Shown one piece after another: positions 5,325 to 51,261 of a stretch of 64,000 nt of DNA (position 1 is its first letter; each line of letters begins with the position of its first letter). The notes under the pieces were generated by a model. It was given only the letters and a program-made list of their open reading frames with translations, ran no database searches and was not told the origin of the DNA. The stretch spans positions 49,160-113,159 of the forward strand of contig VCJN01001306.1 in NCBI GenBank assembly GCA_006384855.1, given 5' to 3'. The DNA comes from Tetraselmis striata. Taxonomy: Eukaryota > Chlorophyta > Chlorodendrophyceae > Chlorodendrales > Chlorodendraceae. The position numbers were made by a program, and so were the translations under genes.

Positions 5325-8300
5325 TCAGTTCTGACTGTACACCGACAGCCGGCCGTTCTCCATGCTGATGTAGAGCTCCATGGTGTTGGTGTTCCAGGCG
5401 AAGCGCGTCGGGGCGCCGCCCGGGAGGAACGTGCCGGGCGGGGCGATGCACTCCACGTGCCCGCAGCGCTCGCCCACGTCGACCGAGTACAGCCCCTTGG
5501 CGGTCGCGACCGCGCAGAAGCTGCCAAAGGGGCTCTGCGACATGGCCACGATGGGTGTGCCGTCGGGCACCACGGACGCCACGGGCGGTCCGTTGTAGCG
5601 CAGGTCCCACACGCGCAGCGCGCCGTCCGCCGCGGCCGTCACCAGCTGCTGCTCCGAGGTCGCGCAGATGTCCGCGATGCGGTGCTGCAGCCCCCACTTC
5701 CGGATGGGCGCGCTGGGCTTCACCTTGAGGTCCCACCTGCGCGCCGCACGGACATCACAGCAGAGGGGGGGGGGGGGGGGGGGTTCAGGGTTTCTAGGGT
5801 TTGGGCATGCACACCCTTACGGCCTCACTTGATGCATGCAGGAGCGGCCCCGTCATGGTTTGCTTGGGAGTACCGGGGTCAATACACTAGGGCTTCATCC
5901 TTCTAGCCTAATCACATGCCTAGGGCTCATCACCCCGTTGACCTACTGAAGCCCTGTTGGGGGTGTATCTGGGTGCGAACAGCATTTGGTGAGCACTCAA
6001 TCGGTTCTCGCAATTCCTGCTGTGGTACCCCCCCCTCCCCCCCCCCCCAAACGTCTTTTCCAAATCCCTCGAGAGGGAAAAGGTGTGACATAGTTGAAAG
6101 GGATCGGATCACGCCCACAATGGAACACGGAATCATTGGCATGATGCGGCGAAAATACACATTGTTTTGGGGGACCGCCAACTCTTGTACATGGTGCAGC
6201 ATTCACCGCAGTATCCCTAGTAGCCCCTTGTTACTTAGTGTGGTACTGTGGATCCGGAGGGTGTGTGTCAGGGCGGAAGGAGGGGGAGGGGGGGGGGGGG
6301 GGGGCGCACATGTGGATGGATCCGTCCATCGCCCCGCTAAACAGCGCTATGCTGAACCGCGAGCGGTGCAGCGCCGTGATCTGGCTCCCGTGGGCGCGCC
6401 ACTCGGCCTTGGGCCGCGCGGGCAGGGCGCCCTTGGGCGAGGCGGGCAGGTTGTACACCAGGATGTTGCCCCCCAGGCTCGCGGCGCAGCAGTGGCTCAG
6501 CGGGCCGCCAAAGAGGTTCAGTGACACCACCTGCAGCGCAGCGCGACAGTGGCATCAGCCGCGTCAATGGGGGCGCCGGGAGGGTTCTGCCGGTGCTGCT
6601 CCGGGATGTGGGGCACCACTGTGTGAAACAGGGGGTACCACGAGGGGCGGTATTGGACCCCCCCCCCCCCCCCCCCCCCCTTCCCCCCCCCCCCCCCCCA
6701 AAGGAGGCAAAAAGTAGGAAAAGGACGAAATCCTCGGACTGCGCCACAACTTCAGCACGGAACCCTCGACGCAGACAGTACACAGTTTTTACCCGGTGGT
6801 GACACGTTGGACTACTCGTGTGGGTGCGGCTCAAGTGCTGCACGCGTGTTCAACCTTAACACATGAACGGACCGATGGCTGTTTAGCGTTTGCGATTTTA
6901 TGGTTTTAACCATAAACCCTAAATAGCCTAAAATCCGTTGTCTTGGCGTCACACATGTGAAAGGAGTACCCAATTTGAGCGCAATTTTTTGGAGTGCGAC
7001 CAAGTGACAGAAGCGGGTCGCTACGCTGTGTGTGTGTGTGTGTGTTTGCTTGTGTGTGCATTATGGCGGGCGGAAGCGAAAACATTATGACCAAAGTAGA
7101 CGCGAAACGTGCACGAGCTGATTCCTGGCCTGTAGAGGTACCGATAGCTGCGCCACTCGTGAATCAGGGCCGGTGAGGCAGATGATGGAGGGGCGGGCCA
7201 CATATGTTTAATTGGGCCGCCAGGCGCGCACCCGCTGCATGCTGCCGCCGCCCACGTGGTTGCCGGTCACGGGCAGCCGGGCCTTGTATGCGAGGAAGCC
7301 CGAGTCGGGGCTGAGCGTGTGCAGCGAGACGCAGTCGGTGCCGGCGTTGACGTCCACGCTGGAGGCCATCAGCAGCTCCACGTCGGGGTCCATGGAGAGG
7401 TCGTTGGAGCGGAAGTCCGTCACCTGGGAGTGCATCAGCTGCGGCGGGGGGCGTGACGGCGCCCCAGACAGTCAGCACACCGGCGGCGGCGTTCCGATCA
7501 AAGGTGTTGGGGCAGTATGGTTTCGGAGCTTTACAGTGTTCTTGCTGCGATTAAGCGCAATGCCAGAAGGAATATGGAAGGAAATGGGAGGAGAGGAGAG
7601 GAGGACGGAGAAGGGGGGCACCTCGAACTCCGATATCAGACAACAGGTTAGTCCACTGTTCATCGTGGCCATGCGGGTATTGCACGGCTGACAGCTGAAA
7701 GGCGATTGATCATTTTCTGGGCCCACGGCCCCGAGGCAATGGTACAGGGAGTCGCACACCGCATGCATGATCTTTAAGGCCCGGTATTGCTGAACATGCG
7801 GTGTGTGTCCTGAATGGTGCTGCCGCATGTGGTTTGGGGTATAGGGTATATCATTAAGGATATTATTAAACCCTGAAATATAACCTATGATGTGGGAGCA
7901 CAAAAACCTAGAACCTACAGAAACCTAACCCAAAAACTCCGCGGAGAATTGTACAGCCAGAGGTTGAGCGGGGCCGTCAGCCCCCAGCGTCTTGGGGGCG
8001 TAAAACAAGACTGGGCTTTCCCGAGTTCAACCCTCGCAGAGTCCCTGCGACGGACTTTCAGCGGCGAATCGCTTCGGAAGCGATCCAGGTACGGACAGCC
8101 TCGGGCAGGCCACGCTCCGTTGTAGTCGTCAAGCAAACTGCCGAAGCATTCCGCAATACTGATTGCCACCAGCGCTAGCAGTGATCACAGCGGGGTGTGC
8201 GGCGGGGAGGGGGGGGGGGGGTACCATGAGCGAGGGCTGGGTGGAGCCCAGACGCCCGTTACCGGCGCACTCCCACAGGTTGAGCAAGCACCTCGAGGAC

Positions 8301-10667
8301 GACACCAGCCAGCCTGGGCGTGCGGTCAAGAGGGGGGGGGGGGGGGGGGGGGGGGGTTCAGGCTCCGCTGGGCGGCCCATGCCACGGGAAGCCTCGCCTA
8401 GGAAAGGGCAAACTTAGCAGGGGCAGGGGCATGATACATCCTGATTCTGCAGCGCTACAGGAAACCGTGTCATATTCAAATTTGGTTCGCGCTGAGCTGA
8501 GCACAAACCCCCGCACAAAGCGCGCCACGTAATCGGGACCGCGGGTCGAAAGAGCGGTGACTTTCTTTTGCGGCATCGAGTCGGAGAGTCCGTGCATTGC
8601 ATTGGATCGAAAATAGACACAGCCTCTTCTCCCTTCGTCGCTCAGCGCGCGTAAAAAACAGTGGTTTCATGATGTAACAACAGCCCAGAGTGCTGGTAGC
8701 GGTAGGCAATCGGGTCCCGGCGGTGTTTAGTGGATGCTCCGTGGCTGTGTGGGGTCACTTTAGTTGGCGAATAGGGGCAGCAGCAGAAGGAGGGCACAAA
8801 GGGGGGGGGGGGGGGGGGCAAACCTGCGTGGCCCTCCTCGCGGGGCAGCCCCTTGAAAGTGGGCGAGTACAGCAGCGCCGAGACCGGCTTCCCGCTGTGG
8901 TCCTCCGCCTCCGTGGTCCAGCAGTGCCGCCAGGTGGGCTGCGAGTGGGCCAGGCGATCAGGGAAGGCGGTCGGGACGTATCGCTCCTCCCGTCAAGCCC
9001 CCCCCCCCCCCCCCCCCAAACCGGAAATCCCCATCCACGCTGACCATCACGCCGCGCTCACCTGGGGGACCGTGCCCTCCGGGAACACCGGCATCGGGGC
9101 GCCGAGGCCGGGGTCCACCTGCGCTCTGCGTGGCGACAAACACAGGTGTCCCCCGCATGGAGGCGTCAGCCGTGCGGCGACAATCGCGGTGCGAAAAGGC
9201 TGTGCACCATGTCAGGAAGGGGGGCGGGGAGAGGGCAGCGAGGAGCGGGGTCGAGTGAACATGCGCCCTACACTGCGAGGCCGCCATCCATATCCCCGCC
9301 ACCCCCACCGTGTCCTGACCGTCACGTACAACATCGCACAGACACCCAGTCCCCACTGATGACGCGGTGACACGCGATGCGTGTCAACCTGTCACCCCCC
9401 TCCCCCCCCCCCCCCCCCCCCGCTCCCCCGGGGCCCCACATACTCCAGGCTCCCTTAGCGGCATCCAACGCCAGAAAATGCACCACAGCATCCCCGCAAA
9501 TGACGGCATGATGCGGGCCCTGCACCCCGCGCCGGCTCGCACCACCACGCCAAACGGCCGCGCACCATCTGCGCCCGGTGCGGCGCCCCTCAAAAGGGAG
9601 GGGGGTCCCACCACATGAAGGCGACGAGAGGGGGGCGAGGAGGGGATGTTCCGTCTCATGATTTCGGCAACATCACCACCACGTGCATATTAGGACACAG
9701 ACCGCAGCGAGCACCGCCGATGATGCAGTGCTGCCCCGGTGCATGCTCGACGCGACTGTCCATCGAGAGCGATACCTCTCTTACCAAGTACATGTACCAG
9801 GGTACTGGCGCAAGGTGAAGTCTAGGAACCGACAGGGGTGGCGCGGCAGGGGGGGGGGGGGGGGGGGGGGTCGCACCCGGGGGCCTTGCGCGCCGGCGGC
9901 TGCTGCGGGGGCTTGACTGCCACGGGCTGCCTGGCAGGCGGCGCCGGCGCGGCCCCCGCGCGGACCTGCATCGGCGCGCGCGCCCACTGCTGGCTGGGTG
10001 TGACGGGCGGGCCGCCCATGCTGGAGGGCGCCCCACCAGTGCGCATGCCCGCCAGCATGGGCGGCGGCGGCGGCGGCGCGTGCAGCATGTCGGGCGCGCC
10101 CATCATGGGCGGCGGCCCCATCGGGAAGCCCAGCCCCGGGCCCATGTCGGTGCCGAGCCCGGGACGGCCGCTCAGGGACAGCCCCTGCATCGGGTTGAAC
10201 AGGCTGCCGACCATGCCACCGCCCGCCGGCTGCTGCTGCTGCTGCTGCTGCCAGGGGTTCCCGCCCAGCCCGCCGGGAGCAGCGCCGCCGATGGGAGCAG
10301 CGCCGCCGCCGATGGAGTGTCCGCCTGGCGCGCCCGGTGGCGCGTGGAACGAGTTCGGCATGCCCTGGAAGATGGGGTCCTTCCCGGGCGGGGCAGGCGG
10401 GGCGGCAAACCCCGTGCTCCCGCTGCCGGGCGGGCCCACCGGCCGCATCGGTGGCGGCGGCGCCCCCCAGGAGCCCAGTGGTCCCGGCGGACCCGCCAGC
10501 TGCAGGCTCGCGCGGCTGACCTCGTTCAGGCTGCTCCCCGCCTGCAGCTGGCTCAGCGCCAGGCTCAGCCGCTCCAGCACCGCCTCCGCCTCCGGGCGGC
10601 TCAGCTCAAGCGAGCCGCTGTACGCGCCGCCGCCAGAGGGCGGAGCAGGCAGGTTCACCACCCCCAT
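5325..10667 (-). CDS. WD40-repeat protein with Pro/Gly-rich N-terminus
   Basis: A ten-exon model reads 10667-9877, 9821-9785, 9519-9444, 9355-9330, 9118-9062, 8938-8824, 8313-8225, 7438-7232, 6530-6310, 5736-5325. All phases agree and the total is 2031 bp, giving 676 residues. Residues 1-263 are rich in Pro, Gly and Met, with a short Gln run, and are probably disordered. The remainder forms beta-propeller blades: [53 protein letters not shown] and [16 protein letters not shown] are WD-type strands, and the protein ends [11 protein letters not shown]40 proteins act as scaffolds, but the subfamily and partners are not identifiable by eye. The start is uncertain: ATG 10667 is the first in-frame Met, but the exon could continue upstream from a CAG acceptor near 10683. 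The shortest exon (26 bp) and the 55-nt first intron are the weakest parts of the model. Confidence 0.75.
6658..6699. repeat. Poly-C tract (C23-TT-C17) in WD40 intron
   Basis: Two C runs separated by TT lie in the intron between the exons ending at 7232 and starting at 6530. They read as G on the gene's sense strand. Confidence 0.95.
8105..8160 (+). repeat. Diverged repeat shared with 20597-20653
   Basis: About 56 bp here resemble 20597-20653. They share CACGCTCCGTTGTAGTC versus GACGCTCCATTCTAGTC, then GCAAACTGCCGAAGC versus GCAAATTGCCGAAGC. This copy lies in a WD40-gene intron and the other in an intron of the chromatin gene. It is probably an old mobile element. Confidence 0.55.
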
Positions 10668-12624
10668 CCGTTGTTGCTGCGGTCTCCGTCGCCTCGTGCA
10701 CAAACAGCCCACTGTGCGCAGACAGGAGAGTCGGCCGCCGCGGAGCGTCAGATGCTATTCACAAACCGCTCCTGCAGAAGGGTCATCACATGAGGATTGG
10801 ATTGTGTGTATTTTGTTTTTGATGCTCGTATGTATGTATTTTAAAGAGGCGCATTGGATAAGCCACCGCGGGGGGGGGGGGGGGGGGGGGGGGGCAAGGG
10901 GGGCATGGCTCCCCTCACAGCTTAGCCGCCGCCGGTGAGCGAGTCTCGCTCGCGTGCCGGGCCAGCGAAATGCGCCAAGCAGAACGCACGCGACGCCGGC
11001 AGGGGATTTGCTGGAGGCGCGCGGCGGTTTGTGACTGCGCGGCGAGTATCCTCTCCGGTGCTGTTGAGTACACAACCCGACGAATGAGGCCGGGCGGCGC
11101 GAACTAGCGGCTAGCAGAAGCACTAGCGATATTTCGACGGCCGCGACGGCTGTGTCCCTGTCGAAGCTGGTAGCCCGACCGGCGAGAGGGCCCATTACGC
11201 GGCTAGGAGCGTGACATGAGAGGCGCGTTGCGCGGTCGCGGGCGGGTGCGGGAAGCAGGGACTAGACTGCTGCTGGCGTGGACGAGCCGCCCGGCGGCGG
11301 GCGTTGCGCGAAGCCAGCCGGATCATGTCCGTGCGAGTCGGCCTGATGATGGCGCCGCCTGGCGGGGTGCGCAGGAAGCAACGCCCTGCCCCGGCCGAAT
11401 CCTGGAAGCCGGATCCAAAATTACCGTCCGGATCCTCACCTGACTGCCGTAGCTCCACAAATTTCCTTTTAGCAACTGCGGGCAGCCTGTCTGGGCGGAG
11501 GAGTGGTTAGATCTGCCACATCTGCTGGCCTGCGGCGGGCGCATAAGGATGCTCCAGGTCTCGAGCGACTTTACGCGCAACTAAACCCTTCTCATGCTTC
11601 AGGCGAGGGCGGCGGTGCGGTGCAAGGTGGTAGTAGTTACAACAGTACCAAGGTACCGGCACGGGTGCGTGTACTCGTAGTCGGAGTTCGCCGCGCGATT
11701 GTTGTGTTGGTTTATAGCGGGTATATATATATTTCCCCTATCAATTCTTTGTTTTATTCAACATCGATTGATACTCGTACCCATTGTAGATATTGGCATT
11801 ATCGTCGGTAGTCCTTCAGTGTAGTACCGCGCATATACCCGACTGTTCGTACACTGGACACTGGCGCACGGCCGACGGCCAGGGGGGGTGGGAGGGGGTT
11901 GGGGGGGTGATATCAATACAATGTAGCCCCCACAGCGGCGGATGGATATTGCCAATAGCTACATACATCCATTGGTGATTCTCGACATGAAACAATAACA
12001 GTGATGTGAGCCAATGAATATCATACCCTTCGCGCTAAGGATCATATATCCTGGAGTTTCATCACTAGGACAACAGCCGGAAGGATTTCTTTGTCTGCAG
12101 TAGCAATACCGGTTGCGTTATATTTTCTTAAAGGAATGTTTCATGAAACTCCGGAAAATTGTGTTGTCATGGCATTCACTGGCGGCACTGTTGCATCACA
12201 CACAGCTACATGATCCCGTGGGGAGGGAAACGCTGCCAGGGTGGCGACCTTGCATTTCCCTCTCTGCACGCGCTGGCAGGGAGCCGTCTGACACTCTGAC
12301 TCTGTCTGACATGCACTACAGACACAACCTGTGTAGATGTGAATTCATGCGCGCAATTTCTGTGAATTCATGTTTGTACTGTACACATTTGTGGAGCTGG
12401 AAACGTGGCAGTGAAGCACTCCAACTGTTCCTGCTGCTGTGGCCATCTGCATGCATGGGGGTGAAATGTACATATCGCGCAATCCGCCTGTGCGCACAGG
12501 GTCGCTGACAAAAAGTTTCACAGGGGGGGGGGGGGGGCACAACTACTTTGGAGAGCTCAGCAGCCCAGGAGGTGGGTTATTCAAGCTGGCGTCCATGAAC
12601 ACGTGCCGGGAGATCCCGGCGACC
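10668..12624. other. Gap between WD40 and GS-like genes
   Basis: No exon could be tied to either neighbour. A 25-G run lies at 10870-10894 and a 15-G run at 12523-12537. Minus-strand open frames at about 11195-11580 might hold 5' UTR or upstream exons of the WD40 gene, but no clear splice chain was found. Confidence 0.4.
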
Positions 12625-14616
12625 TCAGAGGAAACGAAGCAGCGCCTTCTTCTCCGCCTCAAGCCCACCGAGCGCCTGATCACCCTGTTGCAGCGCGTCG
12701 ATGGCCTTCATCTCCGCCTCCTTGAAGATGCGGAACCACTTGACAAACTGCTCCCCCAGCGCCGCCACCATGTACTTGTCGTTCTCCAGCGCGTCCAGCG
12801 CCTCCGGCAGCGACTTGGGCAGCTCCCGGCAGCCGTCAATGGTGTCTGGCAGCGGCGGCTCGAGCTTGTTCTCTATGCCGTCCAGGCCAGCCGCGACGGT
12901 GGCCGCAAGCACAAGGTATGGGTTCGAGGATCCGCAGCCAAGGCGATTCTCAAAGTAACAGCCTTCCTCCCCGTCCCGCTTAAGCCTCACCTGCAGGGTG
13001 GCACACAGGCAACCGTTACTGGCCACGATTGATACCACAGTGGGGTTGGTTAGCCCGGGGAAGAGGGGGGGGGGGGGGGGGGGGGGGAGGGGGTGCACGC
13101 GCGTAGGGGCGGGATAGCGTGCGGCCGAGGCTGTGAACTGTCGGTAGAAGTGCGGCGCACCATCATGTTCCGGTTCTCCAAGCCCCAGGAGGCATGAGAG
13201 GGCGCCCATGCGCCATGCAGCCGGCGGTAGCAGTTGGGCGTCGGCGCATACAGAGCGGCGAGTGCGGGAGCGTGCTTGGTCAGCCCGCCCATCCAGTGGC
13301 GCGCCAGGGCGTTGAGCTGCCAGTCCACGTACTTGAACTCGGTGTCCGCGTCCTCTGCCAGCTTGCCGTCGCTGAACAGGCCGCCCGCCTCTGTCAGCGG
13401 CTGCAGGCTATGGTTGAAGTGGCAGCTGCTGCTGGCCTCGTCAAGCACCGGCTTTGTCATGAAAGAAGCGATCAGCCCCTTCTGCTGGAACATCTCCTTC
13501 ACACCGCTCTTGAAGCGAAACGCGGCATCTGCCGCGTCCAGCCCCGTGGACGGCTCCAGCGTGAGCTCAAACTGCGCGCTGCCGGCCTCGCTCTGCAGCG
13601 TTTCCACATTCACGCCCTGCATCCGCAGGTTCGCCTCCACTTCGAACAGCTCCTCCTCGTACTGAGCCACCACCAGCGTGTTGAAGATGTTGTTGCCGCG
13701 GATGACTGGCTCCAGGGTTTTGCCATCAAACACTGCCACGATGGCACACACAGGGCGTGTAGTCAGCCCCAGCACCTATGCATCGCCAACGGCAGCTGTG
13801 GCCATATCCAATGCTTGCTGCGGATGTGGATGCCGCACGGCGTGGCATGATAGGAGTACATGCGCTGGGGAGGCGCTCACATCTGAACTCGTACTCATGG
13901 GCGGACTTGAGTGTGAAGCCCAGCCGGCACAGCTTCTCCAGCTGTGCCCGGGCAATGGCGCGCGGGTTGGCGGCCTGCCACGCCTCGTCCCCCGCGGCTG
14001 CAGCTGCCATCGCGGGCGGAGTGCCGGCCTTCCACATGGTGTCGCAGATGACGGACACCACGCGGTGCTTGCCGCCACCGGCCCACGGCACCGGGGCGAC
14101 AGCCGGCAGGGCGCCGCTCACGCCGCGCAGCGCTTCGCGCGGCATTTGCCAGGCAATCGCAGTGGCCGGCTTCCACCACCTCCGGCATCAGCACGATGTT
14201 GCTGTATGCGCCAAACGCCAGCACTCCGCCGTAGAGGCCGACACCACCCTGCGTGTTGCTGGCCACCGCGGCTTTGGTCATTGTCTTGCCCTTCGATACA
14301 CCGTTAAGGTCCGGAACCTGTGGGCGGAGTTGAAGACGCGGTTATCACCACGCAGGTGCCAGTGGATGAGCAATGCGTCTGCTCGACGGGGCTTGTAGCA
14401 GCAAACATGGCGAAGGAGCTGTGGGAAGGGGGAATGAGAGGGTCCGCTTCATTTCTTAGGGGTATGCACTGCAGCGAGAAAATCAAAACACGGCATCGCC
14501 GGCTTTTACGAGCAGTGTAGGGAGAGACTTTACCATTGGATGTGGCGGATAAGTCTGTCATTACTTAAGTGATTTATGGTCATCTGCCATCACGAGCTCT
14601 ATAACACGAAGCCCCC

Positions 14617-14659
<43 letters not shown>

Positions 14660-19056: not shown

Positions 19057-19103
<47 letters not shown>

Positions 19104-23086: not shown

Positions 23087-23121
<35 letters not shown>

Positions 23122-24454: not shown

Positions 24455-24519
<65 letters not shown>

Positions 24520-28917: not shown

Positions 28918-29911
28918 CCTTGCTGCTGCTCCGCGACGCTGCCCAATTTACGCCGCGACGCTCCCCGATGATAACGCCGGCAGCGACGAAACGCACCGCC
29001 TCAGCGCCGCCGAGACCGCCTACGCTGCCACGCGGCCATGCCGCTTATGGAATATACAGACTTTCCGATGGGTGGGTGTGCGCGGGAGTGGGGTCGGAGG
29101 GGCGGTGGTGTCCGACGAGCTATCCGAAGCAACCTCTTGCGGGCACTGATGCGACGCAGGATAAATAGGTGCTGTGGGGGCGTCCTCGTCACTAAGCTTT
29201 GTGTGGGGATGGATGGGTATTGGGGGAGAAGGCGCAAGCAGATAATGGGTGTAAGTCGGGACTCCTGAAGCTCCTGAACCCATGAAGCATTATCTGATGA
29301 ATTACGCGGCGGTCGTATCAGCGACAATTTGCACGCGCTTCGATAAATGTATCATGCAAGACTGCTGGCTCCGCCATATAACTGAACGACTGTAGTTAGT
29401 GTGGGAGGGGTCGATAGTAGTTTGGGCTGGTTCGTTCCTGATAACCTGAGGCGCCTCGGACGATGTGTGACGAACCTCCGCGGACGAACGAGGCGTCGCG
29501 CCCGTTATAATATTTAGCGACTAGTCGATATGTAGGCTTTTTCCTTTTAAATGTAGGCTTTTTCCTCCCCCAGTACTTTGCGTGCATTCTCCGGACGCTC
29601 TCCCTGTAACCAAAAAGTTACTAGTCGATATCGCCGGCCTCATCACCGGCTCGCGGCGGGAAGGTCTGTTCTACCTCGCCGCCAGCGGCACAGCGCCCAG
29701 GTGCAATAAATAACGAACGACCTCTCCCCCCCCCCCCCCCCCCCCCCCCACACACACACAGACTCCTTTCCTCCATGCACGTTCTTCTTTCTTCTTGAGT
29801 GGACAGTGAGCCACCAGCTCAGACTCGCTGGGAGCTTACCTCCCTCTCGCCAACTCCGCGGTCCGAGGTTAGTACTTCGGCGCCGCGCTGCGACAACGAT
29901 AAACAGTCGCT
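28918..29911. other. Divergent promoter region with poly-C/(CA)n
   Basis: It separates the unknown minus-strand gene from the GH1 gene, so it should contain both promoters. A 24-C run (29726-29749) runs directly into a short CA repeat about 160 bp upstream of the GH1 start. No exon is recognised. Confidence 0.5.
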
Positions 29912-32900: not shown

Positions 32901-35900
32901 CTTTGTCATTAGGTGTAAATCGCCTACAAAGTACATGTCAGGTTACCATTGCGTAATAAGGTTAAGTGATAAGATTATTCAGTGCTATGGTATTACATGC
33001 AAGGTTACCATCGCTTAATAAGATTAAGAGAAGGTTAGTAAGTGCTATGGTATTACAGACATGAGGAATAGCATTCCAACCTCACAGCACTTTCATTGCC
33101 GCTTCGACCTTCGACTATCGACTTTGTGCAGTGACTTAAAACTTAGAATCAACCAGTGATAGAGTACCCCACGCTGCTATGCTGAGATGTGAAATACCCA
33201 TCGCATGGGAAGAGACTGGTGAAGGGCGCGTCCCCCCCCACCCCCCCCCCCCCTATCCCATCGGGCTGGTTTGATTCCAGGTCCAGGTGTTTTTCGGCTA
33301 CATCTGCGGCAACCACGTGCCGGGCGACCTACTGGCACTGCACAAGGCTGGCCGAGTGTTCTGCAACCTCCTCGTCGCGCACGCGCGGGTGTACCGCGCC
33401 CTGAAAGCCATGCCAGGTGGTGCCCCGCCGCCAGCAGCAACCCCGGGTTTAGGGTTTCTAGGGTTTGAACCCTACAAGGGTTAAATCCTAAAATCCCCTT
33501 CTACTGGCACCACAGGTGGTGCGGAGGCGCAAATCGGCATCGTGCACAACTACATGTGGTTTGAGTCCAAGGGCCGAAGCCCGATTTATGCCTTCACCAG
33601 GTAATTGCTCGCCACCGCCACAGCAACGGCCGCCAACCTGCCAGCCGCCTGTTCATGGCTGTTGCCCCATCCGGCGGGCCCAGACCGCAGCGCCTATAAT
33701 GACTGCGCGTTGCGTTATGCTGCTGTGTACTGCCGTGGAATTGCTACGCGATAGTGCTCCGTCACCAGCCTGGCACCCCAGTATAGGACCAGCGGCATCA
33801 TTGCACTGATTGACCGATCTAAGAATGGCCCGTGTAGCAATTTACGGCATTTTGTAGCCCCAGGAACAACCCCCGATCAGCTGCTTAACCACGATTGTTA
33901 TAAGCTACCTAGTGGATGCAATGCTCATGAATTACACATAATGCCACATAGTCGTTTGTAGATATGTTTGCCGCGCTTGTCCGCGTGTTAGCGGTGGTGC
34001 GTCGCATGCTGTAGCAAGGCGTGCGTTTCGCCACTGGTGCTATGCAATTGTATACTACACGCAAACTGAAAATTAGATTTCACCTTATCTGATAAGAGTC
34101 GGAATTACAAACCGCGCTGCCAGTGCTTCAAAACCGGGTGTTATCGTGCGACGAGTCTAAAATAGTGCCCCCGTCGTCGTCAATGTTGCTGTTTTGCGCA
34201 TCAGCGCACTACCGCAGTAGCTACATAAATAGCCGTATTTGAATCGGAAATCTGCGCATTTTCCAGCATTCCGAAGCCGTGCATTTCCCGCCCGAGGGGT
34301 CGTATCACGACGCTACGCAGTCAGTGCACTGATACAGAACCGGGGTGCTTTGAATATTCAAACACTATCGATACGAATCCCACACTGCTCCAAACCATAT
34401 GATAATGCTGCTGAAAACTCGATTCAAGAATTAGCGAATCACTGGAACCGACATTGGCGCCATCGACCCAATGCGTTTAGCGATGGGTGTCCGGCCTATG
34501 ATGTCATTGTCCACGTGGTGTCGCGGGAGTGCGAATATGTCGAGTAGCATACGGGCGCCAACGCGGCTACAAGAAACCACCCTATAAAGAAAGTGGTCGC
34601 TGGTCCTATCTCATTTGAATACGATATTACAACAAATGTGCAACAAAATCTACGATAAAGTGCGGCGGAAACCGACTCCAAAATGTCAAACAGTTTTTTT
34701 TCTCGTTGGAACACCAGCATCCGAACTAGTCGGACGAAAACTACTCTCGCCGCGCCAACTGCTCCGAAACCACAGCGTTAGCTTATCTTACGTTGGAGAG
34801 CATCGTGCGCCGAGTTTCGTATTGAAAGGTCGTCTGCGACGAGAGCAGTCAGGTCTGACGACTATACTGCATCGCCAGCAAGCAATCGAGGACGAGTCGA
34901 AAAACAAGTCATGTCGACAACGAGATTGCTAAAAAAAAAAACAGAATATTAAATACGTGTTCGAAATTTAGTCTACGCTATTTCCTGGTGATGTCGGTTC
35001 CGGACATCGTCGTCGAATGCCAACGACGATGCGGCAGCAGCAACCGCGTCATCGTGAATCGCCATCGACTGCATGGTAGACACCATGGCATAATGTGCGG
35101 TTTGGGGTTTCGGGTTTTCCTGCTCGTGATGATGTTCTCACAATTTCGCGCTCACTCGACATTGTGCTGGTTTCGGAGCAATTAAGTCGCAAACTTCGCA
35201 ACCCTCCTACATTTCCAGAGTTTTTGTTTAACCACACTTACAATATCGATAAGCGATAAACAGCGGTTTGAAACTGTCTGTGTTGAGTACTCCGAAACCA
35301 TCACATGATTACATCATACGAGTAGATACCCGTAGTCCTGTGGAGCAAGTATCAATGCGGCGGTTTCGGAGCAATCGTTTCATCGAAATCGAAATTATCG
35401 AAATTTCTTTCACGGCTGCTGTTTTGAAACCGTTTGCCAGCACGCCAAGAACTCGTCATAAGCGCACCAATACCAATGGGGTTATTCCTGTCGTCACTGA
35501 GTAGTTGGAAACGTCATCACTGACTACTCAACCATATGTCTTGTGGTAGTGGTAGTAGTAGTACAATGCCGCGCGGGCCTTATTGTGTTTCGACACGTAG
35601 GATCCCGCACACGACATTCCACATATCATACACTTGCCTGCAGTTGGCATGTAGCCATGCACTAGGTAGCACTGCTAACCTATCAAGCGAACTACCCTTC
35701 CTGCCAGCATTGAAGGACCCCTCTTGCTCATTGTCAATGTGCTGCGTCCAGGTACCTTTCGCGCCGGCTGAATCACTGGTACGGCAACCAGCTCGTCCTC
35801 GACTTTTTCACAACCGGGACATTCAAATGGGAGCACCCACTCTGGGGACACTTTGAGCACACCGAGGCGGAGCTGCCGCGCACCGACTGGATAGGCATCA

Positions 35901-37865
35901 ACTACTACACCCGCAGCCTGCACAACCCGGTGTTTGTGCCCACCTGCCGCAAGGGCGAGTACATGACGGACATGCCGTACCGCGCCTACGCCACCGGGCT
36001 GTACGACGCCGTGCAGCACATGTCGCAGTTGAATGTGCCGATGTACATTACAGGTATGTGGACCGGTGAGCCGCCCACCGTGTCACCCCCCTCCCTCCCC
36101 TATAGATTGGGTATCACTTATCTATCTCATCTCGTCTGTTCGCCCCGAGCACATGCAGTAATCGTCTTTTGTGAGATGTAATTACGGACGTAGGATTAGA
36201 TATATAGTTGCATTCTGCTGTGGATGCTTTCCGCGTTGTGCATTCTATTAGTGGCGTTGATACCAGCTCAAGTGCAGTGTCTTGTTAGGTTTTTAGCATC
36301 CTAACAAGACACGGGGATATTCATAGCATTGCAGCTTTGCAACAGGGAATAAGTATCCAAGATCGCCGCGGCTCACAGTTTTTGTGATATCAGGGTGTTT
36401 CCCACACTCCATCCCCAAAGCTTGAACACACCCCCCCCCCCCCCCCCTGCCTGTGTTTTCTTCTTGTCCGCGCGTCCTCGCAGAGACGGGCATTGCCGAT
36501 CGCGATGACACTCACCGCGAGCACCACATTCAGCAGTACATGCAGCAGGTACGGAGGCGCCCATGCCTGTCCGCCCCCCCCCTTGGCCGTGGGGGCATCG
36601 CGTTGGGGACACTTGATGGATGTAAGCGCGCGAGGAAGGGCGGTGAGTTGATGTGCGCCCATGCGCCTCCGGCGGGTATGGGCTTGCACCGCTCGGGATG
36701 AGAGGGTGGATGCTTGGTGGCCGTGCGCAGATTGAGCGCTGCGTGCAGGACGGCCTGGACCTGCGAGGGGTCACCTACTGGACGCTGACGGACAACTTTG
36801 AGTGGGACCAGGGCTGGACGATGCAGTTTGGCCTGTACGAGTTTGACCCCACGACGAAGGTGCGGAGGAGGGGATGAGGGCATGCGGTGTTGCGACGGAG
36901 TGACAGGAGAAACTTTCTCATGGCAATTAACGTAAAACCCTTAAAACTCGCGGCAATCACACTCGAATCACAGTCCCGACATAAACATTGATGTGTTACA
37001 TCGTTTAGGGCTTTAGGGTTTACGGTTTGCAACACCCTCAAATCCCCACCCGTAAAGCCAACACCCTAGATACACACACGACATGCGGTCAACCCTACTA
37101 AAACCCTGCTAAAACACTACCGAAATGAGACAACTACCCGTGCCCATATGATAATTTGTTGGTGGGGGGGGGGGGGGGGGGCGATGACTGAGATAGTGGG
37201 CGGGCAATTCACTTAACCATTATTTACTTCGGCACGCTCCATGGCTACGACTTCTCTGCGATGGCATGGTGCGGCACTGCGACGGCGCTGATGTTGCCCG
37301 ATGGTCCGCCTGCTCGCCGATGGCCGACGCAGGAGCGGACGCTGCGAGTTGGCGCCAGGATCATCAAGAAGATATACCGGGTGAGTGCGGCGTGCAGGGA
37401 TGATGACGGCCCGGCACCTGTGTTTGAAACTGAAATGCAGTTCTTGTGTGTGGGGGGGGCACGGCAGTGTATAAATATATTGAAGGGGTCCTTTTTCTGC
37501 GGTGCAACCTTTTCGCGACATTTTCCCGCGAAAGCCGCATACAGTACATTCGTGCTCTGCTCAACACGGGCGAAGAGCGCCGGCCCGGCGCGATTCCAGA
37601 AATCCTCTCCCAGCAACCTCACGGCGGCCGGCATCCCGAGGCAACCCGGCAACCCGTGCTCAGCTTGATCGACTTAGGCAGGACACGCCCTCAACCCCCG
37701 CCCGCCTTGGAGGGTAGCACTACCTTTACCTTGACCATCGTGATGGCGTGCTATGACCCGCGTGCGCTGACGCGATGCACGTGTTCTTATTGTCGCGCAC
37801 TGTACAAGGGGTTCCTGAAATGCCGATATCGGGTTTTCCTCGTACATGACGCGAAGCCGGTCTAG
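29912..37865 (+). CDS. Glycoside hydrolase family 1 (beta-glucosidase-like)
   Basis: The exons are 29912-30083, 31543-31777, 32343-32664, 33281-33416, 33516-33600, 35752-36053, 36484-36548, 36731-36859, 37333-37380 and 37545-37865. All phases agree, and 1815 bp gives 604 residues. The GH1 barrel runs from about residue 68 to 498: PFLVGVSLSTWQNSGD, SFRFSLEWARIEP, the acid/base loop WATINEAN (E241; most relatives have NEP), GIVHNYMWF, DWIGINYY, the nucleophile loop YITETGIAD (E418; usually ITENG) and GVTYWTLTDNFEW (E463, W464). Both catalytic glutamates are present, so retaining hydrolysis of beta-glycosides is likely, but the substrate is unknown. The first 57 residues are Ser/Ala/Pro/Glu-rich with no clear signal peptide. 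The last exon adds about 107 residues beyond the barrel; part of it could be intron or UTR. Intron 5 is 2.15 kb. Confidence 0.88.
30229..30249. repeat. 21-nt poly-G run in GH1 intron 1
   Basis: It lies in the 1.46-kb first intron of the GH1 gene. A 26-C run follows in the same intron at 30500-30525. Confidence 0.95.
30783..30900 (-). repeat. SINE-like dispersed repeat, copy C
   Basis: Inverted copy in GH1 intron 1. On the minus strand it reads CTTCAGAGGGCTGCATGC, then TATGCGGGCTCA, and ends AATAAAGTTGTAACAG followed by TTTCAATTTCA. Confidence 0.75.
31989..32034 (+). repeat. Microsatellite-flank repeat, second copy
   Basis: It resembles 24528-24575: GCTGTAGGTGGTTTG and CATCCCAGTTGGG. It lies next to a (CT)n tract at about 31869-31891 in GH1 intron 2. 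Confidence 0.6.
33601..35751 (+). other. Long GH1 intron 5 (2.15 kb)
   Basis: No exon fits between the flanking GH1 exons, whose phases already match. The intron carries several copies of GGTTTCGGAGCAAT or its complement (34760-34771, 35169-35183, 35288-35298, 35362-35375). Open frames at 34239-34547 and 34615-34932 are not recognisable. Confidence 0.5.
36277..36312. repeat. Perfect 13-bp hairpin in GH1 intron 6
   Basis: GTGTCTTGTTAGG at 36277-36289 and CCTAACAAGACAC at 36300-36312 are exact reverse complements separated by 10 nt. No U tract or gene end is nearby, so it is not a terminator. Confidence 0.8.
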
Positions 37866-39695
37866 TACTTGGTGCATGATATCGAGGTGTCAAAATTGAA
37901 AGCGAAAATTGAAATTCCGGCTCGGTCAAGGTCATACCCTAGTCGTTGTCGAATATTAGATGGGAGCACCTCTCTGTCGTCGGGCAAGATCGGTCCCGGA
38001 ACCCCCTACTCCCTCCTGCGCTAAGTACTAACGGGATATTGCGCAGTATATCACGCGACGAAAATGGGCGGACCGTCGAAAACGGAACGAGAGATCTGAA
38101 AACGGCATCCCGCGGACGGAGATTTTACCCGGGCTAGAGCTTCACCGTGCCGCTTTTTACATAATTTCTGGTGAAATTCGATGGGCTGCAATACTTACGC
38201 TAGTACATCGGGTACTCGTACACGATGACGGCGTGCCCGGTATCGGCCGGTCCGGAACGCCGTGTGCGATTTTTGATGCACAAAAGATAAACAGGCCCTC
38301 CAAGTTCAAAAACAGCAATCCACAAACATGATTAATACACACTGTTCTCGCTGTGTTATTTGATGGCGAGTAATATCGTTTAGCGGTGTTGAAGGGGGAA
38401 ATTCCTTGCGCCATGAGAGGCGGTGGCGGCGCTGAGACTGCGGCGGGTGTCATCCGGCAGGAAGTTGCCGCTGAAGGTGGCGGAGATCATGTCTGAGCGC
38501 AAGGAGAGCCCGGCGGTGCCGGCTGTGCCGTCATGTACCCGGGACGCGTAGCCCCAACCGGTCCTCCCCACGTAGCTCATGCCGGCAGCGCGCTGCGTCC
38601 CCGGGGTGGTGCACGAACGTTTAGTGCGATGGAAACTCAATGTATTGATGCAAGCCATATGTCCTTGGAATTAGAATTGGAATTGGAATTTGTTACAACT
38701 TTGTTCCTGGGCGACTCAAGCCAGCTGTCTTACAGCCCGACTACTGGAACTCGCATAGGGTCACTATTTAAAGTGCATAGAATATGTCATCATGTAAAGG
38801 CCATGCCTCGCACTCCAACAAGGGAGGCGTGTCATCCCCGCCATCCTCCCCCTCCCCGCAATCCCCTGACTCCAGCACCGTGGTGCACATCTATGGCCGC
38901 ACACTACGAGTGTGCAGCTGCTGACATGTTGTAGTACGAGATAGCCGAGATCCGAGTAGTACGAGATCCGTCGCCATCATATATCGAGGATACAATGTGG
39001 CGTCTACTATATATCTCATACTAGTACAATAGCAATGCCGTATCCCATATCACTCGCGATGATAAATACCCACAGCACAGCATGAAGACCTTCAATATCA
39101 TCCAAGCGCGTACCCGTAGTACTGAATTATTGTTACTGCATTTAGCAAACTACTATCTTACTTAGCGCGCCTGTGTGTGTGGGGGGAGAGGGGGGGGGGG
39201 GGGGGGGGGAGGATGGTGTGCGCCCGCCATCAGGCAGCGGCCCACCAAGAGCGGAGGATCTTGGGTGTCAAGGTGGGAGCTGATGACAGCATCGCGACGG
39301 CTGAGCAGCCTTGCTGATTGGCCATGGCCGGTGGAGCTAAACGCTGGAGCAGGCGGCGACTTCTGGGGGAGAATCACGGCGGGATCATGCGCAAGTATGG
39401 GGCGGTCACGTTATCACGGATTTCGGCGGCCATGCTAGCGAGTACATGCTGGCGCCCTTGAACGAGCGTAAACCCTCGTATGACTCACGTGTAGCGCACC
39501 GTACCAACGATGCAAAATGTGAGGAGATTCTCGCGATATATGGACGATACACTCTCGCAGTGTGTCAGCCACGGATCCCCCGCGCTTGTGATGGAGCGCG
39601 GACATCAAAAGCCACCTCCTTGCACCAAATAAGTACATGTGTTCCTTCCTTGCATCAGTGCTTCGCTATATGCGCACTAAAAGCAGTACAATAAG
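37866..39695. other. Intergenic with SINE-like copy D
   Basis: No gene is recognised. A minus-strand open frame at 38380-38658 is short and unassigned. A 19-G run lies at 39191-39209. Confidence 0.45.
38670..38785 (-). repeat. SINE-like dispersed repeat, copy D
   Basis: Inverted copy that lacks the clear CTTCAGAGGGCTGC start. It retains TATGCGAGTTCCAGTAG, GTAAGACAGCTGG and the AACAAAGTTGTAACAAATT tail, then a short (CCAATT)n-like end. Confidence 0.65.
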
Positions 39696-42405: not shown

Positions 42406-43594
42406 GATGTCCATTCTTACTGCAATCAATGGTCCGTAGGATCGGTGGCTATGAACCATTCAATCGAAGCCCAGCGACGGGATGTAATGCCATGTGCATA
42501 GCCTCATTCATTGCAGTGGCGCAAGACCACCTAGAGCCTTATTGTTCCATCGAGTACTTGGCTAACTGTGCTGCTACTGCTCTTAACTGTATTGCTACTG
42601 CTCTTCGATCGCGTGAGGAGTTTTACGGTGGGACAAACTAGGGGGCCGGCGGATCCAGAGGTACTTCCTCCGTCGACGACATCGCCGAGTGGATCTGATT
42701 TTGGGGGATGGGGGGGGGGGGCAGCTCGGCACGGTCCATCATGACCACTTGCGCCGGTCCACGCTGCAGCTCTGCTAGTCTGCGCCCGCCATCTCGCAGT
42801 CCCCATCGCAGCTCACCGCACTGCGGGCGGCACACCCTGCTCCACGCCCGCAGTGACCCACCCTCCCACACCCTATCCTAGTGGGTGCACCCGCCGGCAC
42901 TGGGGATCCTCCGTCGTTGACCCCACCCCTGCGCCTCGCCCAATCTCCCATAGCCACCAAAGCCGCCCCCCACGCCCGCTCGCGTCATCCGCAGGGGCAC
43001 ATCACACCATGGGGAGCAACATCACGGACGGTGTGAGTCACGACCCACTTTAGACATGTCCATACCAATGCTACAGGGGCGCCAATCAGCATGGCAATGC
43101 CACACTGATGGCTCTGCCTACTTGCATGAGGCGTACAAAGCTCGCTGCCACCCCCGCGCCGCCTCTCCGCTAAATTTGCCACTCACTCCGCCAATTTATG
43201 GCATCAGAAGAGCTGCCAATCAGTCATGCTGCCTGCCAGTGGGGCCATAGCAGTGCAGCGGATGTTTGCCAGAGTAATGCAAGCAAGCAAGGCCCAGAGC
43301 ACCGGGCCGCATGCACCCGCAGCATGACTCACGGCGGCATTGATGATCTGCCGGCATGCACTGACTGGCATGGGTGTCAAGTATGGGAAGAGCGAAAGCG
43401 GGCCATCCAGCCAATGTGGCGCCTGTCAGAAGGGTTGACATGCGTTAAAGCAGTGGCCGTATCCAACTGTGAAAGAGCCTAAAACTTGTGTATTCAAGGC
43501 ACACTCCTGCGTGTGCGGCCCCACCGACTCGTAGCGCGACTCCGTTAGGCTCCCTAATCTCAGGGGCAACCCCCCTCGAGAGACTGGACGTCGC
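42406..43594. other. Intergenic, no gene recognised
   Basis: GC-rich with short open frames on both strands and a 12-G run at 42710-42721. It lies downstream of the mTERF-motif gene. Confidence 0.45.
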
Positions 43595-46352: not shown

Positions 46353-46589
46353 GGATGTAATGGTCCGCTTTTACCATCTGGTTATATCTCCATGTACCGG
46401 TCCTTTTCTTACATCAGTGCTTTCTATTCCCACACTGGTTCTACCTTACCCCTGGTTCTGACGGGATCATGGTTTTTCTCCTGGTAATGCCCCTGGTTTT
46501 CATGATCATGGAACCTCAGCTGCCATGAGAAATATATATTAATTACATAAGGGCTTTCACAAAAGCGCACTACAAACAGAACTAACTTC

Positions 46590-48500: not shown

Positions 48501-49330
48501 CCCACCCGTTACTTATACTTTTGACGCCTGTAGTATTGACCCATACGAAGTGGCTTGGCGAGTCCTCGTACACGCGAGTCCTCGTACAGCCGTAAATTCT
48601 GGTACCCTTTACTATCGACCATTCCCTACTGCACGGAGCGGCGGCGGCGCGATGCCGAGATGAGCTGGCGTAAAATTACCATATAGTTCCCGATGTGGCC
48701 TGACAAAATAGTTATTGCTTGCAACTGTTATTGTCAGTGAAACAACAAACTCTCCCGGCAGTTGAAAAAGTGAGAAAGATGTACCTCTTGAATGGTGAAA
48801 GCGACCGCCCTCCCGCCCTGCAATACATGTGTTTACATACAGGTAATTTACTGTCCTGCCTACACGCCGTGGGGTTGACATGATTCTTGTGATTTTGTTA
48901 ATGTGTTAAACATGAGGGCGTGAGGCTGTGGTCCTTGTATGGAATGAATGCCATCGCGATGCTAGCTCCCATCAGTCTCATCTCCACATGGGCCATTTTG
49001 AGATGATGTCCGGCGAATATGCCAGAGTCAGGCCGCATGCACACCAGTCTTGTCGCCATCCCCATTACATAACACATGATTGTCGCGGAGCGCCTCAGCG
49101 CCATCCATATTACCCTCACGCGGAATGCGTCTTTTTTGAGGCTGTCAACTCCATAGCGAGCATGGGTCCGCAGCCCACGTACCGATTTCTGTGTGTGCGA
49201 TCGCGATCCTTCGCATTGCTGCCGTTCTCCAGGGCTCTCGCCACCGCCAGCACTGTTGTCACCATGCCGCACAGCCCCTACGGCTGCCCCCGTAGCCCCC
49301 ACCACAGCGCGGAAGCCGGGGCAGGTGGGC
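48501..49330. other. Intergenic, no gene recognised
   Basis: It lies downstream of the BtaB-like gene. An open frame on the minus strand upstream of 49353 is a frame shadow of the BtaB-like last exon. Confidence 0.45.
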
Positions 49331-51261
49331 CTACCCCCGCTTGTGCCCCACAAAGTAGTAGTAAGGACACCGGAGGAACGGCACGTACGGGAACGACCCG
49401 TACCCGATCTCGTGCTTCTCCTTCACAAACTTCTGCTCAAGCACCTTGATGTGCTGTCACATGGGCCACACGCCAGCGCGTCAGTGAGGGTACTGCTTCC
49501 GGCCAGTGTGCGCGCAGAGCAGCAGGGCACACCCCAAGCACCACCCATGATGGGCGCCACACCTCCTCCGACAGATGCACGTGGTCGGTGGCGAACATCG
49601 TTTTCCACATGTACTGCATCGCACGCCACTGGTTTGCGGAGTCCACGGTGAAGTCGCACACGCACAGATGGCCCCCTGGCCGCCCACCGCAAAGGAGAGC
49701 CACCCTCGTCAGGGTCCCAGCCTCCCAAGGATTAGGAAAGGCGGATCGATTTGGTGGGTTACATATGGTGGATCACACATGGCCGATAACGCGCGATGGG
49801 TTATATTGCGCAAGAGTCCCATGCAGCGGAACACGTATGTGGGGTACGTGAGACGGGTCGCGCTTTGCGGGTTATGTGCTCTGGGTGTGGAAACTACGTT
49901 GAAATGTAGCAACTGTGACTCAGGGAAAGCTCACACCTAGATGGCCAGGGATACCCACTCATAAAAAGCGCTGATAGAGAGGGGTGGGGGCACCTGGCTT
50001 GAGCAGTCGCAGGGCGTTGGCCAGCGCCGCCTGCCAGTCCGGAATCACTGTCACAGCCGAGCATGCCCATGTTGGTGAACGCACTCACACGCAAGCGTCG
50101 GTGATGGCAAGTGCGGCATGATGGAAAGTGGGTTTCGGTATGGCGCGCACTGGATAGCGAGTAGCTGAAGGTAACGATGTCCACGGAGCCACTGGCCGGG
50201 AGGCCGGGCAGCAGCGGGTCCGTGGCATCGCCCTGCAGGACGGTCACGCGGTCCCCCCAGCCCCGCTCCTCCACGCGCTTCTTCGCCACGTTGACGAGCG
50301 AGGGGGTCAGGTCGACCACGTAGACCTGGTCACAGCAGTTGCCGGCGCGCGGCTCAAGCTCAGCAGGGTTGCATTCAGCCTCAGACTCGCCAAAATGCCG
50401 GTCTCTTGAAACCCCACGGCAAGCCAGACCTTGCTGAAGACGTCCATACACTCCCGAAAGTACTCCACGTTGGAGCCAGTGCCCCCGCCCATGTCCACCC
50501 ACACTGCCCCCTACATGCAGCATCACAGCCCAGCCAGCGTCTCAGCGCCAGCAGCCCCCGCCGCCAAGCGCATCAAATAAGAGGGCTGCAGTGTGCAAGG
50601 CAGAGCAGCGACGGCGCCGTGATGACGCGCCTTCTTGACGGGCATGTTGCTGACCATGGGCTTGCGCCCGTGCAGCATGCGGTGCCTGTACCCATCGTAC
50701 AGGTGCGCCTGGGATGCGTAGAAGCTCTCTAGCACCTCCTCGTGCTCCCCGCCCTCGATCTTACCAAACCACATGGTCTTCAGAACCTGTGCACCAACCG
50801 AGGCGGGGGGGGGGGGGGGGGGGATCATAGCCAGGGGTGGTCGCACTTGGCGAGACAGACGCGGCGCCGACGAGAGTGCGCGACGACCTTGCAACCGCAG
50901 TCCTACGCGTTCGAGAAGTTCGGTGTCAAGAGCTCCCGCCAGTAACGCGCACGGCCAAACCACTCCTGTCGCTCCGTCGCTGGGGCGAAGGAAAAAGCGC
51001 GCGAAAGCGCTGCGGCAGGATCGCAATTCTCCGCGATTCTGACGATCGGGCGCTAGTCGGCCGCGTTCACACGGGTGCTTGCGTGAGCAGAGTGCGCTGC
51101 GAATGCCGAGGGTCGCGACAAAGCCAGCGCCAGGTCGCTCGCCGCCAGATGCGCTCTGTTAGCCTATTGTGCCCTCCCTCCCGGCAGCCGCGCACCTCCA
51201 GATCCTGCCACAGTGTCAGCTGCGGCGCATAGTCAACCACCTTCACCGCGGGGTCGGCCAT
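49331..51261 (-). CDS. BtaB-type betaine-lipid (DGTS) N-methyltransferase
   Basis: Seven exons read 51261-51196, 50786-50627, 50503-50430, 50325-50151, 50047-49994, 49675-49563 and 49453-49331. Phases agree throughout, and 765 bp gives 254 residues. Landmarks in order: VLESFYASQAHLYDGYRHRM and LHGRKPM; the SAM-binding loop WVDMGGGTGSNVEYF (residues 77-91); the post-I strand YVVDLTPSLVNVAKKRVEER; LQGDATD; the joined segment TFSYSLS|MIPDWQAAL; ALRLLKPGGHLCVCDF; and the C-terminal GSFPYVPFLRCPYYYFVG. These match the BtaB half of algal and fungal BTA1, which transfers three methyls from SAM to diacylglyceryl-homoserine. No BtaA (aminocarboxypropyl-transferase) exons are visible on either side, so here the methyltransferase appears to stand alone. 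The donor at 50626 (GTCATC) is unusual but keeps frame. Confidence 0.9.
50805..50823. repeat. 19-nt poly-G run by a splice acceptor
   Basis: It reads as poly-C on the sense strand and ends 18 nt before the acceptor of BtaB-like exon 2, so it may serve as the polypyrimidine tract. Confidence 0.9.

What the first reader, a model, noticed from the sequence alone, without database searches (positions are those of the whole stretch)
5737..50823. Long C or G homopolymers lodged inside introns
About 29 runs of at least 12 C or G occur in the window. Roughly 20 fall in introns of the models built here, for example 6288-6304, 6658-6699, 8209-8221, 8332-8356, 8801-8818, 8998-9017, 9402-9421, 9849-9870, 13065-13087, 14618-14658, 19057-19101, 23089-23118, 30229-30249, 30500-30525, 33241-33253, 36431-36447, 37164-37181 and 50805-50823. 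Several lie within about 20 nt of a donor or acceptor and there read as C on the sense strand, as if serving as or replacing a polypyrimidine tract. Others read as G. None interrupts a coding exon. Such runs should be unstable and may form i-motif or G4 structures, so their retention suggests a splicing or structural role, or an element that inserts with a C/G tail.
Basis: partly seen in the sequence, partly recalled or inferred. Interest (0 to 1): 0.8.

Follow-up and report, generated by a model that had tools for sequence, protein, structure and literature searches.

The report
Long C/G homopolymer tracts, alga-wide
A green alga's nuclear genome is peppered with very long runs of a single base, C or G, which appear to grow and shrink in place by DNA-copying slippage in its non-coding DNA; such tracts are known from worms but are far denser here, and there is little to suggest that they are splicing parts or tails of inserted elements.

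Summary
The runs are real. The window holds 30 C/G runs of at least 12 (about 0.025 expected) and none of A/T; all 18 listed spans check. They are genome-wide: C16 occurs at 551,872 positions in the 224 Mb assembly, A16 at 1,549. In 221 kb they make up 0.94% of the DNA, 290 tracts of 18 or more per Mb against about 4 in C. elegans. Predicted exons avoid them; a special liking for introns is not settled.

Copies show how they arise. At three tract sites in 11-13 copies of a repeat family, and at 31 of 31 sites in four pairs of matching contigs, tract length differs; both flanks align well at 21 of the 31, and at 13 of 31 one copy has under 12 bases. They behave as mononucleotide microsatellites made by slippage.

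An inserting element with a C/G tail is rejected. A polypyrimidine role is not supported: acceptor-like GCAG follows C runs less often than G runs, and only about 1.1-fold more after a word control. A sense-strand lean to C in introns (33:12) is suggestive, as reported for C. elegans. The kind is known; the density is extreme. Why C/G and not A/T is open.

The parts
5765..5783 (.). G19 run (C on the sense strand of a minus-strand gene model with a weak WD-like exon)
   Evidence: models
6037..6048 (.). C12 run
6288..6304 (.). G17 run; 19 nt past a coding-like segment (6324-6539, minus strand), C on sense
6658..6680 (.). C23 run, first half of C23-TT-C17
6683..6699 (.). C17 run, second half of C23-TT-C17
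8209..8221 (.). G13 run
8332..8356 (.). G25 run
8801..8818 (.). G18 run; 12 nt past coding-like segment 8831-8980 (minus strand), C on sense
8998..9017 (.). C20 run; 17 nt before coding-like segment 8831-8980 (minus strand), G on sense: against a pyrimidine tract
9402..9421 (.). C20 run
9849..9870 (.). G22 run; lies in an open proline-rich, codon-biased segment, so coding or not is undecided
10870..10894 (.). G25 run
12523..12537 (.). G15 run
13065..13087 (.). G23 run in an intron of the glutamine synthetase gene (minus strand); C on sense; both flanking exons align to solved relatives
14618..14658 (.). C41 run, between predicted exons of the same gene; G on sense
19057..19101 (.). C45 run, longest in the window
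23089..23118 (.). C30 run
29726..29749 (.). C24 run
30229..30249 (.). G21 run
30500..30525 (.). C26 run
33241..33253 (.). C13 run in an intron of the GH1 beta-glucosidase gene (plus strand), 27 nt before the predicted acceptor
36431..36447 (.). C17 run in an intron of the GH1 gene, mid-intron
37164..37181 (.). G18 run
39190..39209 (.). G20 run
42710..42721 (.). G12 run, intergenic in my model
50805..50823 (.). G19 run; 21 nt before coding-like segment 50628-50783 (minus strand), C on sense; my HMM calls it intergenic
51841..51867 (.). C27 run, intergenic in my model
54229..54250 (.). G22 run, intergenic in my model
62210..62231 (.). G22 run, intergenic in my model
63174..63190 (.). G17 run, intergenic in my model

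Best explanation
The runs are mononucleotide microsatellites of C/G. In a GC-rich genome, short C- or G-rich seeds (about 4-9 bases, sometimes interrupted) arise often; past a threshold of roughly 9-10 bases, replication slippage lengthens them in place to a broad equilibrium of about 12-45 bases, and point changes interrupt and shorten them again. Selection removes them from coding exons, so they remain in introns, intergenic DNA and repeats. Within introns the orientation with C in the transcript may be favoured, plausibly because long G runs in RNA or on the displaced strand are harmful. SHOWN: excess, base specificity, scarcity in predicted exons, length change between copies at the same place. 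INFERRED: slippage during replication as the agent, the equilibrium, and selection as the reason for the exon deficit and sense bias.
For: Length spectrum of C/G runs falls as by chance up to about 8, is 12, 1, 8, 8, 4 at 9-13, and then 93 runs have 14 or more. C16 at 551,872 positions, A16 at 1,549. Three run sites in 13, 11 and 11 copies of one repeat family, 92-95% alike to the query: flanks conserved, longest run 14-34, 15-27 and 8-26. Four contig pairs: 31 of 31 sites differ in length; 13 of 31 have a copy under 12 (such as C25/C7, G17/G4); indels 28.4 per kb of alignment in run zones against 3.2 outside; both 30-column flanks are at least 80% identical at 21 of 31 sites, and at 17 of these only run bases are gained or lost. 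Predicted exons 0.03 per kb against 0.40 intergenic and 0.66 in model introns.
Against: At 10 of 31 paired sites one flank aligns poorly (neighbouring run, gap or start of the alignment), and a few of these, mostly in L062/L063, gain or lose other bases too. No reads were available, so exact lengths, and part of the differences between copies, could be homopolymer error of the assembly; many differences are of 5-18 bases, larger than I would expect from error. Why C/G expands about 350 times more than A/T is not explained by composition alone: expected seeds of 8-9 differ about 13.6-fold in the sample. An MSH6-like exon with its mismatch-contact motif is present, so plain loss of that repair gene is not the reason. 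The intron sense bias is not predicted by slippage alone.
Confidence: 0.86

Rival explanations
1. The runs serve as, or replace, the polypyrimidine tract or another splicing signal in introns and are kept by selection.
For: All 8 runs within 30 nt of a splice site in introns with supported flanks read C on sense (exon score over 6; 7 of 7 at over 8, 3 of 3 at over 12). Intronic runs lean to sense C, 33:12, 24:11 or 12:4 by exon score threshold. AGGTGCG is followed within 30 nt by C12 1,276 times and by G12 514 times. With GACG as control word, GCAG prefers C over G runs about 1.26-fold 5' of the run and 1.09-fold 3' of it. An MSH6-like exon is followed by GTG then C26.
Against: Acceptor side, raw: GCAG follows C12 13,241 times, G12 18,884 times, and after control the preference is only about 1.1-fold. 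The reversed-word control for AGGTGCG has nearly the same C:G ratio (608:302). Position counts near splice sites, 6 donor and 2 acceptor, are not far from the 3.7 expected each for uniform placement. The donor matrix of my gene finder slightly favours C next to a donor, so the 8 of 8 is partly circular. In the window one near-acceptor run reads G (8998-9017). Runs are also frequent outside genes, and copies gain and lose length freely.
Confidence: 0.08
2. A mobile element inserts with a C/G tail and leaves the runs behind.
For: Runs occur inside a high-copy repeat family, and many genomes have elements with homopolymer tails (recalled).
Against: Among 4-base words within 40 bases of 105 sampled runs, the enriched ones are C-rich or simple (CCCC, TCTC, CCCT, CACA), not a shared body; at 17 of 31 paired sites only run bases change between well-aligned flanks; in the repeat family the runs are internal and keep both flanks.
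Confidence: 0.02
3. Assembly or sequencing artefact: long homopolymers invented or lengthened by the assembler.
For: Assembly of 2,903 contigs, read type unknown; homopolymer lengths are error-prone in several read types (recalled).
Against: C/G runs are long while A/T runs are not; a bacterial-looking stretch in the same assembly, L007, has none in 10 kb; predicted exons have almost none; runs recur at the same sites in separate copies.
Confidence: 0.04

Closest known systems
Poly-G/poly-C tracts of Caenorhabditis, guarded by DOG-1/FANCJ (PMC2211496, parts 1-2 of 5 read; PMC6896191, passages)
   Same: C/G homopolymers of 18 and more far above chance, almost absent from exons, in introns and between genes, G preferentially on the non-coding strand of genes (84 against 47), i.e. 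C on sense.
   Different: About 290 tracts of 18 or more per Mb here against 396 in 100 Mb there; maximum 45 in the window against 32; lengths here differ at 31 of 31 paired sites, whereas the tracts tested there (one per chromosome) were the same in two isolates. Dependence on a FANCJ helicase was not tested here.
C/G-dominated mononucleotide repeats of green algae, Chlamydomonas and Volvox (PMC4668000, passages)
   Same: C/G makes up 74.55-91.07% of mononucleotide repeats there; the present organism has green-type LHCII proteins.
   Different: That survey starts at 6 repeats; no density of long runs comparable to this was seen in the passages read.
[quoted passage not shown]
   Same: Poly-C repeats as a recognised class of genomic tandem repeat.
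   Different: The highest value there is 547.8 (Daphnia; bp per Mb as I understand the table, whose unit was not in the section read), and 4.0 in the green alga Ostreococcus; here about 9,380 bp per Mb, by a somewhat different rule.

Membership tests
Mononucleotide microsatellite | Uninterrupted run of one base well above chance | tested here: met
Mononucleotide microsatellite | Length differs between alleles or copies with conserved flanks | tested here: met
   length differs at 31 of 31 paired sites, both flanks well aligned at 21; three sites in 11-13 family copies
Mononucleotide microsatellite | Grows from short seeds in place | tested here: met
   13 of 31 sites with one copy under 12; direction of change is inferred
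Mononucleotide microsatellite | Measured slippage mutation in lines or reads | not testable with these tools
   no reads, no mutation-accumulation lines
Caenorhabditis-type G/C tract | C/G tracts of 18 or more, over-represented, A/T not | tested here: met
   64 in 221 kb
Caenorhabditis-type G/C tract | Depleted in exons | tested here: met
   1 run in predicted exons (30.6 and 27.2 kb)
Caenorhabditis-type G/C tract | G on the non-coding strand of genes preferred | tested here: inconclusive
   33:12, 24:11, 12:4 by threshold; 11:5; added loci were not a random sample
Caenorhabditis-type G/C tract | Kept by a DOG-1/FANCJ helicase | not tested
   no search for the helicase was made; needs a mutant
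Polypyrimidine tract of introns | Pyrimidine run upstream of acceptors in preference to purine run | tested here: inconclusive
   raw contrast opposite (GCAG after C12 13,241, after G12 18,884); 1.09-fold in favour after the GACG control (5,129 and 7,944)
Inserted element with homopolymer tail | Shared body at one flank, run arriving together with it | tested here: not met

The most novel reading that the evidence does not exclude
This alga tolerates on the order of 100,000 potential G-quadruplex/i-motif homopolymers because its replication or repair machinery handles them differently, and selection orients them in transcribed DNA so that C runs, not G runs, enter the RNA, with donor-proximal C tracts tuning splicing.
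Probability: 0.15. Interest if true: 0.7.

Novelty: new member of a known kind. Interest (0 to 1): 0.42.

Why it matters
Long C/G homopolymers are thought to be dangerous because they stall replication, and the other genomes I saw figures for have far fewer. A genome with nearly one per cent of its DNA in such tracts would be a natural test bed for how cells copy, repair and transcribe G-quadruplex-prone DNA, for why C/G rather than A/T slips, and for whether transcription selects tract orientation. It also warns that length differences in this species will cluster at these runs.

Tried and rejected
Intron-specific enrichment: in window plus sample (L007 included), introns with strong flanking exons had 16 runs in 28.8 kb (0.555 per kb) against 0.403 in intergenic DNA, 0.657 in model introns and 0.52 in non-coding DNA as a whole. 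With L007 dropped and five gene loci added, supported introns had 45 runs in 45.2 kb against 92 in 169 kb (p 0.0015), but those loci came through a MutS search and are not random. I leave it open.

Acceptor test, four genome-wide patterns within 24 nt (matches, not runs, and repeats not removed). 3' of C12: GCAG 13,241, GACG 5,129. 3' of G12: GCAG 18,884, GACG 7,944. 5' of C12: GCAG 17,135, GACG 6,949. 5' of G12: GCAG 17,055, GACG 8,711. The C/G ratio of GCAG over that of GACG is 1.09 on the 3' side and 1.26 on the 5' side.

Donor test: AGGTGCG before C12 1,276, before G12 514; reversed-word controls 608 and 302. Suggestive only.

Composition alone: rejected, since A/T runs do not grow in proportion to their expected seeds. 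Loss of MSH6: not supported, though only one exon was seen. Literature: ten searches listed nothing whose title, abstract start or passages read report such a density; that covers only this library. Passages of PMC8156620 and PMC11686069 were not used.
Full report
What was checked.

The trait is genome-wide. The window lies in a 224 Mb, 2,903-contig assembly. Twenty stretches from evenly numbered contigs (167 kb) have 75 such runs, 0.45 per kb, against 0.47 in the window. One stretch, L007, looks bacterial (66% GC, no runs); without it, window plus sample is 221,059 bases with 105 runs, 9,382 bp per Mb in C/G runs against 63 bp per Mb in A/T runs, and 64 runs of 18 or more, 290 per Mb. Genome-wide, C16 is found at 275,788 forward and 276,084 reverse positions, A16 at 872 and 677. 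Scaling the sample gives on the order of 100,000 runs of 12 or more (inference). The length spectrum in the 221 kb is 408, 111, 41, 18, 12, 1, 8, 8, 4 for C/G runs of 5 to 13, then 93 of 14 or more; A/T runs give 191, 59, 24, 3, 2, 2, 1, 0, 0, then 1. That break near 9-10 is typical of slippage above a threshold (established knowledge of microsatellites, recalled).

How they arise. (a) L010 and L023 are copies of a repeat, 93% alike over 3.3 kb; at most of their runs the flanks are the same and lengths differ, for example C8 against C14 and C6AC7AC6 against C19GAC21 (the first run shown there lies outside the similar part). A search listed dozens of further matches. I read three run sites in short stretches of 11 of these copies plus L010 and L023: site 1 in 13 of 13 copies, sites 2 and 3 in 11 of the 11 for which that part was fetched. 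Longest runs span 14-34, 15-27 and 8-26. (b) A MutS-domain search brought up pairs of matching contigs. Four pairs, 98.2 to 90.8% alike (alleles or duplicates, not known which), hold 31 run sites in the parts that align (the first 860 and 815 bases of L062 and L063 were left out, with one L063 run of 15). Lengths differ at 31 of 31, and at 13 one copy is under 12, often a short or interrupted seed at the same place (C25/C7, G24/G8, G17/G4). Both flanks are at least 80% identical over 30 columns at 21 of 31 sites, and at 17 of these nothing but run bases is opposite a gap; at the other 10 one flank aligns poorly because of a neighbouring run, a gap or the start of the alignment, and a few of these, mostly in L062/L063, gain or lose other bases too. 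Indels are 26 in 916 alignment columns of run zones (28.4 per kb) against 53 in 16,648 elsewhere (3.2 per kb); mismatches are also denser in run zones (80 against 463), partly an effect of aligning imperfect runs. Among 4-base words within 40 bases of the 105 sampled runs, the enriched ones are C-rich or simple (CCCC, TCTC, CCCT, CACA). So the runs grow and shrink in place, and an inserting element is rejected.

Where they lie. I trained a small HMM gene finder on the window and sample: coding GC3 0.87, GT-AG and GC-AG introns (65 and 12 of 103 candidate introns, some of them false ones in L007). Homology supports two gene models: glutamine synthetase at 12.7-14.9 kb on the minus strand and a GH1 beta-glucosidase at 31.5-36.8 kb; a methyltransferase domain lies at about 49.4-50.4 kb. 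Predicted exons have 1 run in 30.6 kb (0.03 per kb), intergenic DNA 0.40, model introns 0.66, well-supported introns 0.555 (L007 still included). With L007 dropped and five further loci added (L054, L057, L058, L060, L062), well-supported introns have 45 runs in 45.2 kb against 92 in 169 kb elsewhere at the laxest threshold; these loci were not random, so intron enrichment is open while scarcity in predicted exons is firm.

Strand and splice sites. In well-supported introns sense C: G is 11:5, and 33:12, 24:11, 12:4 at three thresholds (binomial p 0.002, 0.04, 0.08, not corrected for choice of loci). All 8 runs within 30 nt of a splice site read C (laxest threshold), but the donor matrix slightly favours C there. 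Genome-wide words do not support a polypyrimidine tract: GCAG lies within 24 nt 3' of C12 13,241 times and 3' of G12 18,884 times; the control word GACG gives 5,129 and 7,944, so after control C is favoured 1.09-fold. On the 5' side the corrected preference is 1.26-fold (17,135 and 17,055 against 6,949 and 8,711). AGGTGCG precedes C12 1,276 times and G12 514 times, but the reversed word shows 608 and 302, leaving about 1.2-fold. These small excesses, largest on the donor side, fit a modest sense-C lean in genes. They could hide a splicing role for a minority of runs. Caenorhabditis has the same lean: 84 intragenic tracts with G on the non-coding strand against 47 (PMC2211496). I read the sense bias as likely but modest, and better explained by harm of G-rich transcripts or displaced strands than by a splicing signal (inference).

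Cause of the C/G preference. Composition gives more C/G seeds, but expected seeds of 8-9 differ only about 13.6-fold in the sample, against 356-fold in C16 versus A16. An exon whose best solved match is MSH6 keeps the FYE mismatch-contact motif (the meaning of the motif is recalled), so that part of mismatch repair appears present. The remaining cause is unknown.

Compared with what is known. C. elegans has 396 C/G tracts of 18-32 in 100 Mb, human 200 in 3.3 Gb; only 4 of 396 in exons, 121 in introns (PMC2211496, parts 1-2 of 5 read). In dog-1 mutants such tracts suffer deletions (PMC6896191, passages). G and C mononucleotide repeats folded as G-quadruplex and i-motif in one assay (PMC7441554, passages). 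Chlamydomonas and Volvox have C/G-dominated mononucleotide repeats (PMC4668000, passages). Across 12 genomes poly-C peaks at 547.8 (PMC3152781, Table 3; taken as bp per Mb). A recent survey finds mononucleotide repeats predominantly A/T in protists, animals and plants (PMC12699852, passages). The kind is therefore known; the density here exceeds every value I saw, about 70-fold that of C. elegans for tracts of 18 or more and about 17-fold the Daphnia poly-C value.

Limits. No reads, no annotation, one genome; the gene finder fuses genes and its splice sites are approximate; genome-wide word counts include repeats and count matches, not runs. Organism identity is limited to green lineage by one LHCII-type protein whose best single-domain solved matches are of green-lineage type (lineages of those entries recalled; the two top rows are long multi-domain LHC proteins whose scores sum several domains).

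Noticed in passing
L007 (G000:C240:10001-20000): Looks like bacterial contamination in the assembly: 66% GC, no C/G run in 10 kb, spurious tiny introns in the gene model.
   Followed up: partly
L053 and L056 (contigs C613 and C2605): Long intronless MutS-like open frames (937 and 966 aa), 69-74% GC, 69% alike as DNA, without C/G runs; origin (possibly viral insertion) not examined.
   Followed up: no
L052 (contig C2280): 951-aa intronless MutS open frame, best domain score by far; possibly bacterial contamination.
   Followed up: no
L054/L055, L058/L059, L060/L061, L062/L063: Pairs of contigs 91-98% alike over kilobases: the assembly seems to hold two haplotypes or recent duplicates for part of the genome, while window 12600-13900 shows no second copy.
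   Followed up: partly
L057:1561-1614: MSH6-like exon ending KFYELYE is followed almost directly by GTG and C26: a long C tract starting at the fourth base of the presumed intron.
   Followed up: partly
window 46539-48408 and 40055-40744: Repeat family: 96% alike to L011 over 1.9 kb, with relatives in L017 and L019; carries an open frame with no Pfam match at E 0.05.
   Followed up: no
G000:C1767:222840-280606: Chlorophyll a-b binding genes with equal or nearly equal scores repeated along one contig and on several others: probably an array of near-identical LHC genes.
   Followed up: no
window 53965-54115: 79-bp unit duplicated in tandem, 98% matches.
   Followed up: no
window and sample introns: 12 of 77 GT/GC-AG candidate introns start with GC, and donors lean to GTG[GC]GC, acceptors to GCAG; approximate models, some false ones in L007 included.
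   Followed up: partly
window 53128-53201: tRNA-Ser (GCT) gene on the minus strand, the only tRNA found in the window.
   Followed up: no
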